From an uncultured Spartobacteria bacterium (GTDB lineage Bacteria; Verrucomicrobiota; Verrucomicrobiia; Chthoniobacterales; Chthoniobacteraceae): DNA of 51,686 bases. The DNA is taken from assembly GCA_903901425.1 (NCBI GenBank), contig CAIURC010000134.1, forward strand, positions 1-51,686, in the 5' to 3' direction. Below are positions 1-9,156 of the stretch, in pieces; position 1 is the first letter of the stretch; each line of letters starts with the position of its first letter. The notes beneath the pieces were generated by a model. It was not told the origin of the DNA. It saw nothing but the letters and a program-made list of their open reading frames with translations, and ran no database searches. The translations under genes were made by a program, and so were the position numbers.

Positions 1-1
1 A

Positions 2-196
2 ATTGCGGGGTCGCACGAAGCACGCGAACTGAATCTCCCGCTGGCTTTTACCATGTTTAGAAAACTGACCCCAATGGATCACCCGATCAAGGAGCGGGCG
101 GGGATCACGCAGGCCTGCCGGACTTCGTTGCAGGTGAAGTCGCATGGAGAGGAGCATGCGGAGCGCTGGTGGGAGGAGGGGCTCAAAACAGCGTGA
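2..196 (+). CDS. 3' end of an unidentified gene (partial)
   Basis: An open frame runs in from the window edge and stops with TGA at 194-196, giving the last 64 residues of a protein. The tail is charged and soluble (ends ERWWEEGLKTA) with no membrane segment. An internal ATG lies at 53, but the frame is open upstream of it, so the true start is probably outside the window. I do not recognise the family. The DNA just after the stop repeats the short motif tgaaccc, which can be seen near insertion-sequence ends, but nothing else supports that. It is read towards the minus-strand cassette that follows. Confidence 0.35.
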   Translation: MAGSHEARELNLPLAFTMFRKLTPMDHPIKERAGITQACRTSLQVKSHGEEHAERWWEEGLKTA

Positions 197-333
197 CCCC
201 TGAACCCAAAAACTGAACCCCGGCCGATCCGACGCCTTGGCTCGGCTTGCAAACCGCTGGATGGGTGCGAACCGCCTGTGTGCGGTGGGAGGGATGTGCG
301 GGGGGGTAGGGTGACGGAAACCCCTCTTCAGGT

Positions 334-1245
334 TCAGATCTCCGCGGTGTCCACCCACCAATTGCAATTGGCATCCATCCAGCAGCCGTGAATCGCGGCA
401 GGCGCCTCTTGAAAGGAGACTGTCGTCAAGGCCGCCCTCAAGGCAGGGTAATGCGATGCGGGCACCGCTGTGAACACCGCCGGAAAACACAGGGATTGAG
501 CCAACTCGAGAGCATTTTGGATGATGCGTGCTCCTTCTGATGGCTGCTTGAATCGAAATGAGCTCAGGTGCGCCGAGACCAGTTCTGCACCGTTGCCCGT
601 CCAGAGGCGTTTGCCACGCCGGGTGTCTTCGAGCCAAGCACCACCGTGCAATGGAATGGGGTTCATCTGACTGCGGAGATCGCGACGCCGGCCCATGGCG
701 ACGCAGTCATTACTGGAACTCCGGAAAGTTGAAGTGGTTAAAGTGGTCTGGCTTGGTTTCCTGAGCGTCATTCGCAAGATGATGATCTCTGCAATCTTCT
801 CGAAGCTAGGGATTCCCATGCGGCCGGTGTAATCGGAGGGGAGGCGGGCCGTGCCACCCATCACCACACTGTAACAGGAACGGAATTCGGTAAGCTCGAT
901 CTGGCGCCGGGCTTCAAGCATGAGGGCAGCCAGAACGCGCCCTTTGGAGGCGCCTGCGCTGACCTTCAAATCCGCCAGATAGTGGACGGGCCGGTTTAAA
1001 ACCTTCCTGCCATGCACTTTGATCCATCGCTCAACACGGACGAGGGTGCCGATCACTGCGCCCGAGTGCTCTGCTACCAGCAACGTGGCGGCTCCCATGG
1101 CGGCAAAGAACGGCAGGTACTTGCGGTCATGCGAAATTCGGAAGGTCTCGTCTGCGCCAAGCGGATACTGGAACTGGTGCTCGAACTGCTCCAGAGCCAG
1201 ACCGAGCCACTCTGGGGGAGCCTCGCGGAAGCTGTGGATGGTCAT
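334..1245 (-). CDS. GNAT-fold acyltransferase-like protein
   Basis: A 303-residue soluble protein. Residues about 50-150 look like a GNAT core: a strand with LLVAEHSGAVIGTLVRV, then a basic turn and a strand with YLADLKVSAGASKGRVLAAL, the usual site of the acetyl-CoA pyrophosphate loop, here with a G-rich but non-canonical sequence. The C-terminal 120 residues may hold a second, degenerate GNAT half. The start overlaps the stop of the upstream DUF3419 gene by 4 nt (ATGA), so the two are probably translationally coupled. The donor and acceptor cannot be read from the sequence. Given its partners, N-acylation of an amino-acid-derived product is a reasonable inference, not a demonstrated role. 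Confidence 0.7.
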   Translation of the reverse strand: MTIHSFREAPPEWLGLALEQFEHQFQYPLGADETFRISHDRKYLPFFAAMGAATLLVAEHSGAVIGTLVRVERWIKVHGRKVLNRPVHYLADLKVSAGASKGRVLAALMLEARRQIELTEFRSCYSVVMGGTARLPSDYTGRMGIPSFEKIAEIIILRMTLRKPSQTTLTTSTFRSSSNDCVAMGRRRDLRSQMNPIPLHGGAWLEDTRRGKRLWTGNGAELVSAHLSSFRFKQPSEGARIIQNALELAQSLCFPAVFTAVPASHYPALRAALTTVSFQEAPAAIHGCWMDANCNWWVDTAEI

Positions 1246-2261
1246 GGACGTATGCCAACAAAAATCCGTGGATAGAAGAATGAGCGGTCACGCGGCTCCA
1301 TTCGCCGGCCCCATTCGGCATCCCAGGCGATGGAATCGGTCAGGGTCTCGAAATGGAGCGAGGAATTCAACTGGCGGGCGATGAGTTTGCCGTTCGGTTT
1401 CAGGACGCGCGCGGCGGCGTTCAACGTCTGGGTGGCCTGTGCGGGCGAAAGCCAGTCCAAGATATTGGAGACGTGGACCATGTCAGCGCTTGCGGGCGGC
1501 AGTTCCGAGAGAACTGCCATCATGGTCCCGTGGTGCCAAACAACCTCTGTCCGGATGGGCTCGGAACGCTCCAGCCAATCGTATCGGTGACCGGGTGCAA
1601 AAGTACCCGTGTACATCTGATGGAGGAAGGGGTTGACGGCTGCTTCCTTGCGGGCGAAGGCCTCCTCGCTCCGATCGGCAAAGTGCTCGCAAAATGGCCG
1701 ACGCGGGTTTTGAACCGCTTGCTGGCCGAAGAGGGTCGTCAGGTTTGGAAGGGTCATGACCTTTGCGAGAGCCTCTCGTGGGCTGAATCCGTCGTGGATG
1801 AGGTCTCGCATGGCGGCAAAACAGCGTTCGTAGCGCCCGGCATGATCGGGACCGAGTTCGGCTACCAGCCCCAGCGGCCCGAAGATGGTCGCGGGCAGTT
1901 GCAGCGTTGCCAGCAGAGCTTTCAGTGTATTGCGGCGTTCCGATGGGGGCATGGGTTCGTGACCCAGAATTTGGCAAATGACCTCCGGCGGGGTTGTTCC
2001 GGCCAGGTGCAGTTTCAATTGTGCGAGGGCGATTTGGGCCGGATTCATGTCCACCGCATGGATGCGTGCCAGCGGACGGCGTGCAAGCGGAATGACGGTC
2101 TCTCCACCGGAGGCGATCATGACCACAACACCGTCGCGCGGCAGCGTCTCCGCGATTTCGCAGTCCAGACGTGGGTCTTCACGGACCTGAGCAAAAGCGA
2201 GGGGGAGGGTGGAGGCTTCGATGGCCCATGGATCAGGTGCGTTCACGTTTGAAGATGGCAT
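1242..2261 (-). CDS. DUF3419 (BtaA-like) S-adenosylmethionine 3-amino-3-carboxypropyl transferase
   Basis: 339 residues from the ATG at 2261; a TTG at 2300 in the same frame is a weaker alternative. The SAM-binding part has the family pattern ASGGE-TVIPLARR then AVDMNPAQ, and the C-terminal half has HVSNILDWLSPAQ followed by VLKPNGKLIARQLNS, as in BtaA proteins. Family members move the aminocarboxypropyl group of SAM rather than its methyl. The best known, BtaA, makes diacylglycerylhomoserine, the precursor of betaine lipids. No BtaB methyltransferase is adjacent, so a betaine lipid is not assured. The gene sits between a diiron oxidase plus a desaturase remnant and a GNAT protein, all overlapping, which points to a dedicated small pathway. 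Confidence 0.8.
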   Translation of the reverse strand: MPSSNVNAPDPWAIEASTLPLAFAQVREDPRLDCEIAETLPRDGVVVMIASGGETVIPLARRPLARIHAVDMNPAQIALAQLKLHLAGTTPPEVICQILGHEPMPPSERRNTLKALLATLQLPATIFGPLGLVAELGPDHAGRYERCFAAMRDLIHDGFSPREALAKVMTLPNLTTLFGQQAVQNPRRPFCEHFADRSEEAFARKEAAVNPFLHQMYTGTFAPGHRYDWLERSEPIRTEVVWHHGTMMAVLSELPPASADMVHVSNILDWLSPAQATQTLNAAARVLKPNGKLIARQLNSSLHFETLTDSIAWDAEWGRRMEPRDRSFFYPRIFVGIRP

Positions 2262-2747
2262 GGAGACCAAAAAGAGGATGCCGGAGGCGTGCAGATCCAA
2301 GTTTGCAGTGCAAACGCAGGACCACCTTGGACGCAGTCATGACCACAGACGGCATGAGCCTGAGTAAAAAGCGCCCGACAAAAACAGCTCCATTCCCAAT
2401 CAAACAGCATCTGGGTGATCAAGGCGTGCAGGCTCGGGAACGGGGCGTGTGCACAGGGAAACCGATGCCGTATTCAGGATGCGATTCTCCATCAAAGTAC
2501 CGTGGACGGTCTCATGGGTGAAAAGACGGATCCCATGCAAGGAAGCCGCCACGAGCAAGGAGATCGACATCTTCAGGAGAAACGGCCAAGCGATTGTTGC
2601 CTGAGTGGCGACGGCGATCGAACCGGCGGCACATCCCAGATAAAACAGGGCGAACACCGCGCCCCGCGCCAAATGACGGCCTGCGGAACGTGCCAGACAT
2701 CGTCGGAGAACTTCGGGAGCCGATCGGAGTGAGGTCGGCACATTCAT
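2233..2747 (-). pseudogene. fatty acid desaturase-like gene, truncated and frameshifted
   Basis: The ATG at 2747 overlaps the diiron oxidase stop by 4 nt. The first 115 codons encode two hydrophobic segments and then HGIRLFTHETVHG, which matches the first histidine box (HxxxH) of membrane fatty acid desaturases. The frame hits a stop at 2400-2402, before any second or third histidine box. In another frame the DNA from about 2400 continues to a stop at 2233-2235 with a basic tail (LHAIFKRERT), overlapping the DUF3419 start by 29 nt as an operon gene would. Total remaining length is about 171 codons against about 300 for the family, so a frameshift plus an internal deletion is likely. Inactive as written; the family call rests on one His box. 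Confidence 0.5.
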
Positions 2748-3532
2748 GGGGTCAAGCGTGCCTCCTGCCACAGATCTTCATACAGGCGGTTGAACACATG
2801 GAGTCCGAGATGCACCCCCTCTTCGACCAGTCGACGTCGTTCGCTTCCGGAATCCCAAGCCTCTGTCACAACCTCAAAAAAATCCCCCGCATGGCGTCGG
2901 TCGATTTCGGCGTGCAGCGTGTAGTGCACGAGTCGAATCTGGTTGATCCATCCTCGATTCACGACGGCCTGGCCGATGAGGGCTGAGAGGTCGGCAAAGA
3001 CATACTCGATGACTCCAAGGCACCCGAAAGCCATCTCCACGGGTTCCATCAGGCAAGTGCCCATGAGGCTGGTGTTAAAGGCGCGCACGGAAGCGCCTTC
3101 GCGGTCCAGGCCCCCTGGCCCAATTGCACCCAAGGTTTCCAGGAAGCGCACAAAGGTCAGATCATGCGAAAGGGCAGGGTCCATCCGACTTCCATCTTCA
3201 GCGCTGCCATGTTCCTCCATGAGGTTGTGGACCAAACCTTTCCGCAATGATGAACTCGGCTGGCGCGCCATGAGCGCTGCCATGGGGCGTGAAAAGTAGC
3301 GCACGGCGAAGAAGAATTGCCGTTGAGTCCGCGCAAACTCTTCCCGGCTCATCTCACCGTTCAAAAGGCTGTTGAAGAACGCGTTCTGCGCGATCGCCTT
3401 CGTATGCGCCTGATTTTCGACCCAAGTGATCATCTCAACTGGATGTTTGAGCTCCACCGGGTGCTGGCTGGAGCCATATCCTCTTGCCGCTCCACATTCT
3501 TCCGAGACGTTTGGATGTGGCAATCCGTCCAT
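2744..3532 (-). CDS. heme-oxygenase-like diiron oxidase (HDO; PqqC/CADD/TenA-like fold)
   Basis: 262 residues, all helical and soluble. Metal ligand candidates fit the HDO pattern: E106/E107 in NLMEEHG, H123 in HDLTFVRFLETLG, E176 in VIEYVF, and the terminal H207-x3-D211-x2-H214. Known HDOs oxidise amino-acid or fatty-acid-like substrates (for example UndA, BesC, CADD, SznF). TenA thiaminases share the fold but lack these iron ligands. The first about 33 residues look non-conserved; an internal ATG at 3433 (MITWVENQ) may be the real start. It is first of the overlapping cassette 3532-334 and so probably carries out the oxidative step on whatever the DUF3419 and GNAT enzymes handle. The substrate is unknown. 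Confidence 0.75.
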   Translation of the reverse strand: MDGLPHPNVSEECGAARGYGSSQHPVELKHPVEMITWVENQAHTKAIAQNAFFNSLLNGEMSREEFARTQRQFFFAVRYFSRPMAALMARQPSSSLRKGLVHNLMEEHGSAEDGSRMDPALSHDLTFVRFLETLGAIGPGGLDREGASVRAFNTSLMGTCLMEPVEMAFGCLGVIEYVFADLSALIGQAVVNRGWINQIRLVHYTLHAEIDRRHAGDFFEVVTEAWDSGSERRRLVEEGVHLGLHVFNRLYEDLWQEARLTP

Positions 3533-8430: not shown

Positions 8431-9156
8431 ATGAATCCCGAGTCCCAATCGGTTTCCTGGATCCGTGTGCTCCGGAGCCGGATGCACCATCTCTGGGCGT
8501 TGAAGTTCACGGGATCCGTGGTGATGGTCTGGGCTTTCTTTTACGCGTATCTGTGGATCCTCCGGCATCCGTCGGTGCCGGCGCTCGCGATGCCGCTGAC
8601 TGTGGTGGACCGCTGGGTGGGGTTTGCGCCGTGGTCCATCTGGATCTATTTTTCGCTCTGGCCCTACGTGATCATTCTGCCGGCGTTCTACGCGGGTTTC
8701 AGACAGCTCCTGGTGTATCTCACGGGAGCGCTTTTGATCAGCGGGGTGGGGATGAGCATCTTTTATTTCAGTCCCACGGCGGTTCCCGCGGAGCGGGTGG
8801 CGAACCGGGCCCAGCATCCGGGGTTCGATCTTCTGGAGGGCGTGGATGCCACTGGCAACGCATGCCCGTCGCTGCATGTGGCATTTGCCGTGTACACGGC
8901 GCTTGGGATGCGGCGGGTCCTGCGGGAGATTGGGGCGCCAGCCGGGGCCCAGCACTTCAACCTCCTCTGGGGGGGCGCAATTGCGCTGTCGACGTTGACC
9001 ACCGGGCAGCACGTCTTCCTGGATCTGATTGCTGGGGGCGCTCTCGCGGCGCTGACGGCCGTCCCGGTGTTTGATCTCTTGCACCGGCGGACTCCGGAGG
9101 GCGAAAACCAAGCTGCTCCATGCCCGGGAAAACCGCCTCGGGCACAGGGGGGATGA
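8431..9156 (+). CDS. PAP2-family membrane phosphatase
   Basis: 241 residues with about six membrane segments. The PAP2 motifs are visible: CPSLHVAF (PSLH at residues 146-149, catalytic His149) and the third motif TTGQHVFLDLIAG with His194 and Asp198. The first motif (KxxxxxxRP) is not clear, which is common in the inositolphosphorylceramide-synthase-like PAP2 branch. It probably hydrolyses or transfers a lipid phosphate at the outer face of the inner membrane. The C-terminal tail is short and polar. The start follows a C/T-rich leader. It is followed at 75 nt by a secreted protein gene; no clear functional link. Confidence 0.8.
   Translation: MNPESQSVSWIRVLRSRMHHLWALKFTGSVVMVWAFFYAYLWILRHPSVPALAMPLTVVDRWVGFAPWSIWIYFSLWPYVIILPAFYAGFRQLLVYLTGALLISGVGMSIFYFSPTAVPAERVANRAQHPGFDLLEGVDATGNACPSLHVAFAVYTALGMRRVLREIGAPAGAQHFNLLWGGAIALSTLTTGQHVFLDLIAGGALAALTAVPVFDLLHRRTPEGENQAAPCPGKPPRAQGG

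What the first reader, a model, noticed from the sequence alone, without database searches (positions are those of the whole stretch)
334..3532. Overlapping cassette: diiron oxidase + desaturase + BtaA-like aminocarboxypropyl transferase + GNAT
Four minus-strand genes overlap by 4, 29 and 4 nt and encode an HDO with a complete ligand pattern, a desaturase-like protein (now broken), a DUF3419 transferase and a GNAT protein. I know of no described pathway with this set. The reactions together would suit an N-acylated, oxidised homoserine- or aminobutyrate-type lipid or signal. Family roles are known; the combination and product are inference. The BtaA-like gene has no adjacent BtaB.
Basis: partly seen in the sequence, partly recalled or inferred. 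Interest (0 to 1): 0.72.

Follow-up and report, generated by a model that had tools for sequence, protein, structure and literature searches.

The report
Widespread orphan N-acyl amino-acid cassette
A small set of enzyme genes that travels together through many unrelated bacteria, one of them a bacterial look-alike of the eukaryotic protein-myristoylating enzyme, probably makes an unknown fatty-acyl amino-acid compound or lipid; the copy in this genome has lost two of its five genes in one deletion.

Summary
The cassette is real and conserved. In 70 of 78 named-record loci found with its DUF3419 protein, DUF3419, a GNAT and a haem-oxygenase-like diiron oxidase (HDO) lie together on one strand; contig ends explain 6 of the 8 exceptions. 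Record titles span about nine phyla. A desaturase joins in 42 loci and a PAP2 gene in 18.

In the window one deletion of about 1.23 kb fused the desaturase start to the PAP2 end, so this was a five-gene cassette. The three survivors remain under purifying selection.

The GNAT is the surprise. Its last residues are fixed (67 of 70 complete proteins), and its confident model matches N-myristoyltransferases end to end (Z 17.6), the C-termini pairing. NMT uses that terminal carboxylate as base.

Best reading, all inferred: DUF3419 moves the aminocarboxypropyl group of SAM to an acceptor, the NMT-type enzyme N-acylates it, the HDO oxidises it. No reaction is shown. The genome has a separate canonical DUF3419, so this is probably not betaine-lipid synthesis. 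I found no published description in the open-licence papers searched.

The parts
2744..3532 (-). HDO: haem-oxygenase-like diiron oxidase (PF14518), complete; first gene of the cassette
   Evidence: Pfam 48.2 bits; ligand positions E/H/E/H/D/H identical in 52 of 52 aligned proteins; only match in the genome to the cassette HDO profile; dN/dS 0.19-0.22 vs L033 and L045
2451..2747 (-). Remnant: N-terminal third of a membrane fatty-acid-desaturase-like gene (PF00487), ATG at 2747; the frame runs on to a stop at 2400
   Evidence: Aligned to intact relatives; deletion mapped against L033 and L045; no other match to the desaturase profile in the genome; dN/dS 0.34-0.37 vs L033 and L045, against 0.17 between their intact copies
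2442..2451 (.). Deletion junction: 1233 bases present in L033 and in L045 are missing here
   Evidence: blastn pieces against L033 and L045; junction DNA printed
2233..2442 (-). Remnant: C-terminal part of a PAP2_3 (PF14378) lipid-phosphatase-like gene, with three 1-nt indels; overlaps the DUF3419 start by 29 nt
   Evidence: Alignment to L033; PAP2 profile 23 bits at 2246-2473; Pfam of the intact copy in L033, 1e-13
1242..2261 (-). DUF3419 (PF11899), divergent BtaA-like SAM enzyme, 339 aa, ATG 2261 (TTG 2300 less likely)
   Evidence: Pfam 102.9 bits, cut-off 28.2; model pLDDT 96.2; class I methyltransferase fold with a long helical insertion; separated from canonical DUF3419 in the tree
334..1245 (-). 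NMT-type double-GNAT N-acyltransferase, 303 aa, C-terminus ...VDTAEI
   Evidence: Model pLDDT 93.6, about 67 over residues 161-180; Foldseek E 1.3e-8 and VIA Z 17.6 to NMT over 262 residues, model residue 303 against NMT1 residue 496; terminal residues fixed in the family

Best explanation
A horizontally spread biosynthetic cassette for an N-acylated, SAM-derived amino-acid compound, most likely a lipid. Proposed order, all of it inferred: (1) DUF3419 binds SAM and transfers its 3-amino-3-carboxypropyl group to an acceptor, probably an alcohol as in BtaA, giving an O-substituted homoserine. (2) The NMT-type double GNAT N-acylates the alpha-amine from an acyl-CoA, using its own C-terminal carboxylate as general base, as NMT does. 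(3) The HDO, which in four loci is one polypeptide with DUF3419 and so probably acts on the same intermediate, oxidises the amino-acid headgroup with O2 (desaturation or oxidative decarboxylation or fragmentation, as in BesC and UndA). (4) Where present, the membrane desaturase adds a further unsaturation or hydroxyl and PAP2 supplies or trims a lipid-phosphate precursor. The window strain lost step 4 by deletion and keeps steps 1-3, like the many lineages in which only those three genes are found. Shown here: gene content, conservation, selection, predicted fold and C-terminal fixation. Inferred: every reaction, the acceptor, the acyl donor and the product.
For: Core genes together on one strand in 70 of 78 loci, in six gene orders counting the desaturase (three for the core alone), and four DUF3419-HDO fusions. 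The reverse search with the GNAT profile found it in 16 of 294 Planctomycetota genomes; DUF3419 lies beside it in 16 of 16 and HDO is seen in 11 of 16; four of those 16 are, or look like, loci already in the 78. The GNAT profile matched one locus in each of 12 of 14 genomes and none in 2 (in G429 reported as two adjoining pieces). Pairwise distances agree: GNAT-DUF3419 r=0.91, DUF3419-HDO 0.78, GNAT-HDO 0.67, against at most 0.23 in 1000 permutations, which ignore relatedness. NMT fold and paired C-termini; the last residue has 0.32 bits of entropy against 3.07-3.71 for the other three proteins. The literature gives NMT's C-terminal carboxylate as its base (PMC7048800, passages) and BtaA as an aminocarboxypropyl transferase (PMC10491745, passages). 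Two nocardicin aminocarboxypropyl-transferase chains are among the DUF3419 Foldseek rows (ranks 30 and 50). Best curated match of the three desaturases tested is the amino-acid hydroxylase GntB. PAP2 in 18 of 78 loci points to lipids.
Against: The DUF3419 here does not group with canonical DUF3419, and its fold search returns mostly methyltransferases, so methyl transfer is not excluded. Two of 16 planctomycete cassettes have no HDO within 17 kb of sequence (L139, L146), and two loci lack genes with no contig end to blame (L086, L099). PAP2 and the desaturase are not found in many loci, so a lipid product is not forced. NMT-type folds in bacteria have no shown activity, and the authors who reported them warn against inferring it (PMC12219266, passages). 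In HsNMT1, removing the last two residues left kcat unchanged, another carboxylate taking over (PMC7048800, passages), so the terminal carboxylate is not indispensable even there. The NMT match is from a model; I saw aligned ranges, not coordinates, and in some rows the last aligned residue is 301 rather than 303. The C-terminus is less uniform in the divergent group (for example TYQI, TGDI, TSDL).
Confidence: 0.42

Rival explanations
1. Oxyvinylglycine-type antimetabolite: DUF3419 makes a homoserine ether, the desaturase and/or HDO desaturate it to an enol-ether or vinylglycine warhead (as the desaturase RtxC does in rhizobitoxine, recalled), and the GNAT N-acylates it as a prodrug or self-protection step.
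For: The desaturase matches the amino-acid hydroxylase GntB best among curated models (3.6e-23 for L019); 14 of 52 HDOs also match BesC, which makes an allylglycine. ABC-transporter ATPase-like ORFs occur somewhere in 12 of 78 loci, in several gammaproteobacterial ones just upstream (named by eye).
Against: The desaturase is not found in 36 of 78 loci, a few of them cut by contig ends. PAP2 points to lipids. The RtxC comparison is recalled; the eight papers listed did not hold the term, and no sequence was compared. No transporter family occurs in more than 12 of 78 loci in the neighbour clustering.
Confidence: 0.15
2. DUF3419 is a methyltransferase in this cassette: a pre-existing amino acid or lipid is N-acylated by the GNAT, oxidised by the HDO and methylated by DUF3419.
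For: Class I methyltransferase fold with the usual SAM motifs; Pfam methyltransferase models hit the C-terminal part.
Against: PF11899 is the stronger match (102.9 against 35.2 bits), and BtaA, the characterised member of that family (family membership of BtaA recalled), transfers aminocarboxypropyl groups.
Confidence: 0.2
3. Diffusible N-acyl amino-acid signal analogous to acyl-homoserine lactones rather than a membrane lipid.
For: N-acyltransferase plus a SAM-derived headgroup; sporadic, horizontally spread distribution.
Against: In the neighbour clustering no regulator-like family, as named by eye, occurs in more than 6 of 78 loci; the window GNAT has no LuxI-family Pfam match.
Confidence: 0.13
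4. Protein modification: the NMT-type enzyme acylates an N-terminus or a lysine of a protein, and HDO and DUF3419 modify the same peptide.
For: NMT fold and C-terminal layout.
Against: No recurrent small precursor gene among the families shared by four or more loci in the neighbour clustering of ORFs of 70 aa or more; shorter peptides were not sought.
Confidence: 0.06

Closest known systems
BtaA (DUF3419/PF11899), S-adenosylmethionine:diacylglycerol 3-amino-3-carboxypropyltransferase of betaine lipid synthesis
   Same: Same Pfam family, SAM-binding motifs and the ED ... DW core residues
   Different: QVREDP/ASGG/SNILDWL instead of CWEDP/TSAGCNALDY/LDHMDWL as in the genome's canonical copy; separated from canonical members by a very long branch; no BtaB-like gene beside it; the genome has a canonical copy as well
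Eukaryotic N-myristoyltransferase (NMT) and the bacterial 'NMT-type' double-GNAT structures noted in the HisAT/NAT16 paper
   Same: Whole-length fold (Z 17.6, 262 residues) and C-terminus paired with NMT1 Gln496, the catalytic base
   Different: About 11% identity; 303 residues against 341-426 in the listed chains; none of 58 members matches an NMT Pfam model at E 0.01; sits in a biosynthetic cassette; substrate unknown
CADD-family self-sacrificing p-aminobenzoate synthase and BesC (HDO superfamily)
   Same: Nearest solved structures by sequence; ligands kept
   Different: CADD's catalytic Tyr27 position is Phe in the window protein; its Lys152 position is Leu in 23 of 52, Lys not being among the six commonest residues there
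GntB, arginine hydroxylase of guanitoxin synthesis (membrane desaturase superfamily)
   Same: Best curated NCBIfam match of the three intact desaturases tested
   Different: 82.5 bits (L019) against a cut-off of 380
OlsB/OlsF ornithine-lipid and NasY/FeeM N-acyl amino-acid pathways
   Same: Would also give an N-acyl amino acid
   Different: Those use PF13444 or N-acyl amino-acid synthase enzymes and take existing amino acids (PMC11631085, PMC12479983, passages); no SAM-derived headgroup or HDO is mentioned for them in what I saw

Membership tests
DUF3419 (PF11899) | Score above the Pfam gathering cut-off | tested here: met
   102.9 bits against 28.2
BtaA (betaine-lipid enzyme proper) | Groups with canonical DUF3419 and carries the CWEDP / TSAGCNALDY motifs (that these mark BtaA is recalled) | tested here: not met
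   The 9 canonical rows form their own group (100/99) on a branch of 7.4 changes per column; motifs differ. The program said the bootstrap had not settled and warned that the canonical and Legionella-b long branches meet.
BtaA (betaine-lipid enzyme proper) | Aminocarboxypropyl transfer from SAM to diacylglycerol | not testable with these tools
   Needs an assay
HDO superfamily | PF14518 match and six metal ligands (E, H, E, H, D, H) | tested here: met
   48.2 bits against 28.9; 52 of 52 aligned proteins keep E88 and E89, H105, E158, H189, D193, H196
CADD / p-aminobenzoate synthase | Self-sacrificed Tyr27 and Lys152 (residue roles recalled) | tested here: not met
   Aligned Tyr27 position: F 39, L 11, V 1, M 1 of 52. 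The residue before it is Tyr in 47 of 52, so a one-residue shift would matter for relatives, but the window protein has Phe at both. Aligned Lys152 position: Leu in 23 of 52, Lys not among the six commonest
NMT-type double GNAT | Double-GNAT fold like NMT | tested here: met
   Predicted model, Z 17.6, rmsd 4.0, 262 aligned over model residues 1-303; all 50 Foldseek rows shown are NMTs
NMT-type double GNAT | C-terminus ending at the active site (definition of PMC12219266) | tested here: inconclusive
   Aligned ranges pair model residue 303 with NMT1 496 in the top rows and end at 301 in some; terminal residues fixed in 67 of 70; coordinates not inspected
N-myristoyltransferase (enzyme) | Match to the NMT Pfam models | tested here: not met
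   0 of 58 members at E 0.01; generic GNAT models and one stray match only
N-myristoyltransferase (enzyme) | Transfers myristate from CoA to protein N-termini | not testable with these tools
   Needs an assay
LuxI acyl-homoserine-lactone synthase | LuxI-family Pfam match | tested here: not met
   No Pfam family at E 1 for the window protein
Membrane fatty acid desaturase superfamily (PF00487), intact relatives | PF00487 match and three histidine boxes | tested here: met
   1.2e-45 for L019; HxxxH, HH and HxxHH histidines identical in 31 of 31
GntB | Score above the NCBIfam equivalog cut-off | tested here: not met
   82.5, 74.1 and 74.6 bits for three desaturases against 380

The most novel reading that the evidence does not exclude
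An undescribed biosynthetic pathway spread across about nine bacterial phyla by record title, including intracellular lineages, makes a new class of N-acylated, O2-modified, SAM-derived amino-acid lipid or signal. Its acyltransferase is a bacterial NMT-type enzyme that uses its own C-terminal carboxylate as catalytic base, giving a first biological role to the bacterial NMT-type folds.
Probability: 0.4. Interest if true: 0.85.

Novelty: new variant of a known kind. Interest (0 to 1): 0.66.

Why it matters
A tightly conserved three-gene unit with no described product that I could find recurs in free-living aquatic bacteria and in host-associated lineages, so its compound is probably made widely and overlooked. 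A 2025 study reported NMT-type structures in bacteria and archaea and warned against inferring their activity (PMC12219266, passages). The cassette supplies a genetic context and a likely substrate class, so that question can be tested directly. The fixed C-terminus gives a sharp mechanistic test, and the DUF3419-HDO fusions suggest which two steps share an intermediate.

Tried and rejected
Rejected: CADD/p-aminobenzoate synthase for the HDO; TenA/thiamine (NCBIfam matches run to CADD and BesC; one thiamine-enzyme hit at E 0.016); betaine-lipid operon; stieleriacine pathway, considered because one cassette lies in a Stieleria, but stieleriacines are attributed to NasY, nitroreductase and ThiF-type genes (PMC12479983, passages).

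Led nowhere: Foldseek and VIA for DUF3419 matched the Rossmann part to methyltransferases and a few aminocarboxypropyl or aminopropyl transferases; the helical insertion of about 150 residues is barely covered, which is no evidence of a new fold. A PDB sequence search with the GNAT profile gave nothing at E 1. Paper searches for DUF3419 with desaturase/GNAT, DUF3419 alone, BtaA with HDO terms, NMT in bacteria, double-GNAT, stieleriacines, and BtaA with Legionella/Verrucomicrobia/Planctomycetes showed no description of the cassette in the listings, nor did the passages seen in eight papers (PMC13108848, PMC13185094, PMC10491745, PMC12219266, PMC7048800, PMC11631085, PMC12479983, PMC12493201). 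The library holds open-licence PMC papers only. No RtxC sequence was available, so that comparison rests on memory.

Limits: one search kept the best 80 of 134 confirmed stretches (78 loci); the rest were not seen. The query peptides come from the cassette's own DUF3419 subfamily, so the 70 of 78 is a statement about that subfamily. In the reverse test L113 is L081, and L111, L112 and L114 look like L067, L109 and L087 (same C-termini), so at most 12 of the 16 are new; L127 is L086. Many Verrucomicrobiota loci are close relatives. Taxon names are record titles; some MAG titles (such as a Chlamydia species name) are doubtful, and the record titled Lentisphaera lies in the window's own phylum in the genome search (G125). 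dN/dS against the more distant L034 is saturated (dS above 2) and gives 0.09-0.11 for all four stretches, the desaturase fragment included, so the relaxation rests on L033 and L045 alone.
Full report
WHAT IS THERE. The window is contig C134 of a 5.1-Mb, 224-contig genome (96% complete), position 1 being the contig end. On the minus strand lie an HDO (2744-3532), a DUF3419 protein (1242-2261 from the likeliest ATG) and a GNAT-fold protein (334-1245), with a desaturase-like fragment between HDO and DUF3419. The stop/start overlaps HDO/desaturase and DUF3419/GNAT are 4 nt each.

THE SCAR. The nearest relative, L033 (a Verrucomicrobiota MAG, 83% DNA identity), has HDO, desaturase, PAP2, DUF3419 and the start of GNAT, where its contig ends. 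The window aligns to it in two pieces with 1233 bases missing between them; L045 shows the same break with the same length. The junction is at about 2442-2451. What is left is the first 98 or so residues of the desaturase and the last part of PAP2, the latter with three 1-nt indels. No other match to the desaturase or HDO profiles lies in the genome. Against L033, L045 and L057, dN/dS is 0.19-0.22 for HDO, DUF3419 and GNAT and 0.34-0.37 for the desaturase fragment, compared with 0.17 between the intact desaturases of L033 and L045. Against the more distant L034 synonymous change is saturated and all four stretches give 0.09-0.11. So three genes are still selected, and the remnant is probably relaxing.

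CONSERVATION. Searches of 40 genomes of the family and 387 of the phylum showed the subfamily is rare but recurrent: in the family strong matches in the window's genome and three others, in the phylum draw 5 of 387 at E 1e-15, the window's own genome included. The first relatives already carried HDO-desaturase-DUF3419-GNAT (L019, L020, L030, L031) or DUF3419-GNAT-HDO (L029, L032), while a genome of the same genus had DUF3419 alone (L021). A scan of named genome contigs with the DUF3419 alignment gave 78 loci (best 80 of 134 stretches kept). With the window, 71 of 79 hold all three core genes, that is 70 of the 78 loci. Of the 8 others, 6 are cut by contig ends (L045, L057, L058, L075, L080, L108) and 2 are real absences (L086, Legionella worsleiensis, no GNAT; L099, DUF3419 alone). 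In every one of the 79 the detected genes lie on one strand. Orders, window included: HDO-DES-DUF3419-GNAT 29, DUF3419-GNAT-HDO 25, DES-DUF3419-GNAT-HDO 9, GNAT-DUF3419-HDO 6, then 3 DUF3419-GNAT, 2 DES-DUF3419-GNAT and five orders once each. In L082, L083, L092 and L098 DUF3419 and HDO are one open frame. The desaturase was found in 42 of 78 loci (in L068 only as a fragment), and PAP2 in 18 of 78, in all 18 together with the desaturase.

REVERSE TEST. Searching with the GNAT profile, 16 of 294 Planctomycetota genomes have it. DUF3419 is beside it in 16 of 16: 15 within the 1.5 kb first fetched, the sixteenth at about 1.8 kb; in one, L145, it is on the opposite strand at a contig end. HDO is seen in 11 of 16, not seen beside contig ends in 3 (L144, L145, L147), and absent from 17 kb around L139 and L146. 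Four of the 16 are, or look like, loci already among the 78. In 14 chosen genomes the GNAT was found in 12, at a single locus in each (two adjoining pieces in G429), and not in the genomes of L086 and L099. In 140 genomes of the order of L. worsleiensis the DUF3419 occurs in 6: that species and five others, all five showing DUF3419-HDO-GNAT followed by a second DUF3419 gene, which in L134 scores higher with PF11899 than the first (120.6 against 89.7 bits).

CO-INHERITANCE AND SPREAD. Pairwise distances of GNAT and DUF3419 correlate at r=0.91 (n=51), DUF3419 and HDO at 0.78 (48), GNAT and HDO at 0.67 (42); the largest of 1000 permutations was 0.23 (permutations ignore relatedness). Record titles put the loci in Verrucomicrobiota, Planctomycetota, Pseudomonadota, Chlamydiota, Dependentiae, Eremiobacterota, Elusimicrobiota, Lentisphaerota and Cyanobacteriota. 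In the DUF3419 tree two gammaproteobacterial rows group with a planctomycete one (99/84), next to a verrucomicrobial one with weaker support, which suggests horizontal transfer.

THE GNAT. The window copy has no Pfam match at E 1; relatives match only generic GNAT models, apart from one stray hit. Its C-terminus is extraordinary: 67 of 70 complete proteins end in [STN]x[EDQN][IVL]. The three exceptions are PAEI, a frameshifted row and one with an ambiguous base. The last position has 0.32 bits of entropy, against 3.71, 3.07 and 3.49 for HDO, DUF3419 and desaturase. In the divergent planctomycete and Legionella group the end varies a little more (TYQI, TGDI, TSDL). A fixed last residue suggested an NMT-like terminal-carboxylate mechanism, and the structure prediction was made after that. 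The model (pLDDT 93.6, 58 sequences; about 67 over residues 161-180) has NMT structures in all 50 Foldseek rows shown (best E 1.3e-8). VIA-align gives Z 17.6 over 262 residues with residue 303 paired with NMT1 residue 496; some rows end at 301. In NMT1 that residue's carboxylate is the catalytic base, though removing the last two residues left kcat unchanged and cost peptide affinity (PMC7048800, passages; PMC12219266, passages). The latter paper defines NMT-type by a C-terminus reaching the active site and reports such structures in bacteria and archaea without a tested function in the passages I saw.

THE HDO. Nearest solved structures by sequence are CADD-type p-aminobenzoate synthases (3e-14) and BesC (7e-6). 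The ligands are invariant in 52 of 52, but the residues that make CADD self-sacrificing are not kept in the window protein. All 52 members hit the CADD NCBIfam model at E 0.001 (the window copy with 28.5 bits against a cut-off of 200), and 14 hit BesC.

THE DUF3419. The model (pLDDT 96.2) is a class I methyltransferase fold with a long helical insertion. The same genome has a canonical 389-bit DUF3419 on contig C49, overlapped by a different GNAT gene (PF13480) and next to a methyltransferase-like ORF. The canonical rows stand apart on a very long branch. So the cassette enzyme is a paralogue, probably with its own role, and the absence of BtaB beside it says little.

MECHANISM. The function that best joins these parts is SAM-derived aminocarboxypropyl transfer, N-acylation and O2-dependent oxidation of the resulting headgroup. 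The fusion ties DUF3419 to HDO. The PAP2-desaturase pair suggests a lipid in part of the family. The DUF3419 + NMT-type pair may be the minimum, since it occurs twice without a nearby HDO. None of the reactions is shown.

NOVELTY. The paper searches showed no description; the library is partial. All enzyme superfamilies are known; the combination, its breadth and the bacterial NMT-type enzyme in it appear undescribed. I class it as a new variant of a known kind (N-acyl amino-acid/aminolipid biosynthesis).

Noticed in passing
window 8431-9156 (+): A second PAP2_3-type phosphatase/phosphotransferase ORF (PF14378 1.5e-10), about 5 kb from the cassette on the other strand; whether it is linked to the cassette was not tested.
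   Followed up: partly
window 1-330: The contig breaks in a repeat: bases 1-141 are identical to the start of contig C137 and similar pieces lie on C196 and C201. C137 carries a tRNA-guanine-transglycosylase-like ORF about 2 kb in (named by eye).
   Followed up: partly
window 706-765 (GNAT residues about 161-180): This stretch aligns poorly to relatives and is the lowest-confidence part of the GNAT model (pLDDT about 67); a local frame disturbance in the window copy is possible.
   Followed up: no
L153:3223-5698 (G000 contig C49): The genome's canonical DUF3419 overlaps a PF13480 (FemAB-like) GNAT gene, so DUF3419 is paired with a GNAT there too; a methyltransferase-like ORF is divergent beside it.
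   Followed up: no
L133:6300-10152, L134:8471-12164, L135-L137: In five genomes of the order of Legionella worsleiensis the cassette ends with a second DUF3419; in L133 an ABC transporter gene (named by eye) follows it.
   Followed up: partly
L060-L063, L066: In these gammaproteobacterial loci an ABC-transporter ATPase-like and a permease-like ORF (named by eye) lie upstream on the opposite strand.
   Followed up: no
L086:6414-7832: In Legionella worsleiensis a group II PLP decarboxylase-like ORF (named by eye) precedes the DUF3419; its HDO is N-terminally short and the GNAT is missing, so the cassette looks degenerate there.
   Followed up: no
L064, L073, L076, L093, L108, L109, L112: DUF3419 is covered by two HMM pieces in these loci, either because the insertion is shorter (one open frame) or through frame breaks (two frames in L108, L109 and L112).
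   Followed up: no
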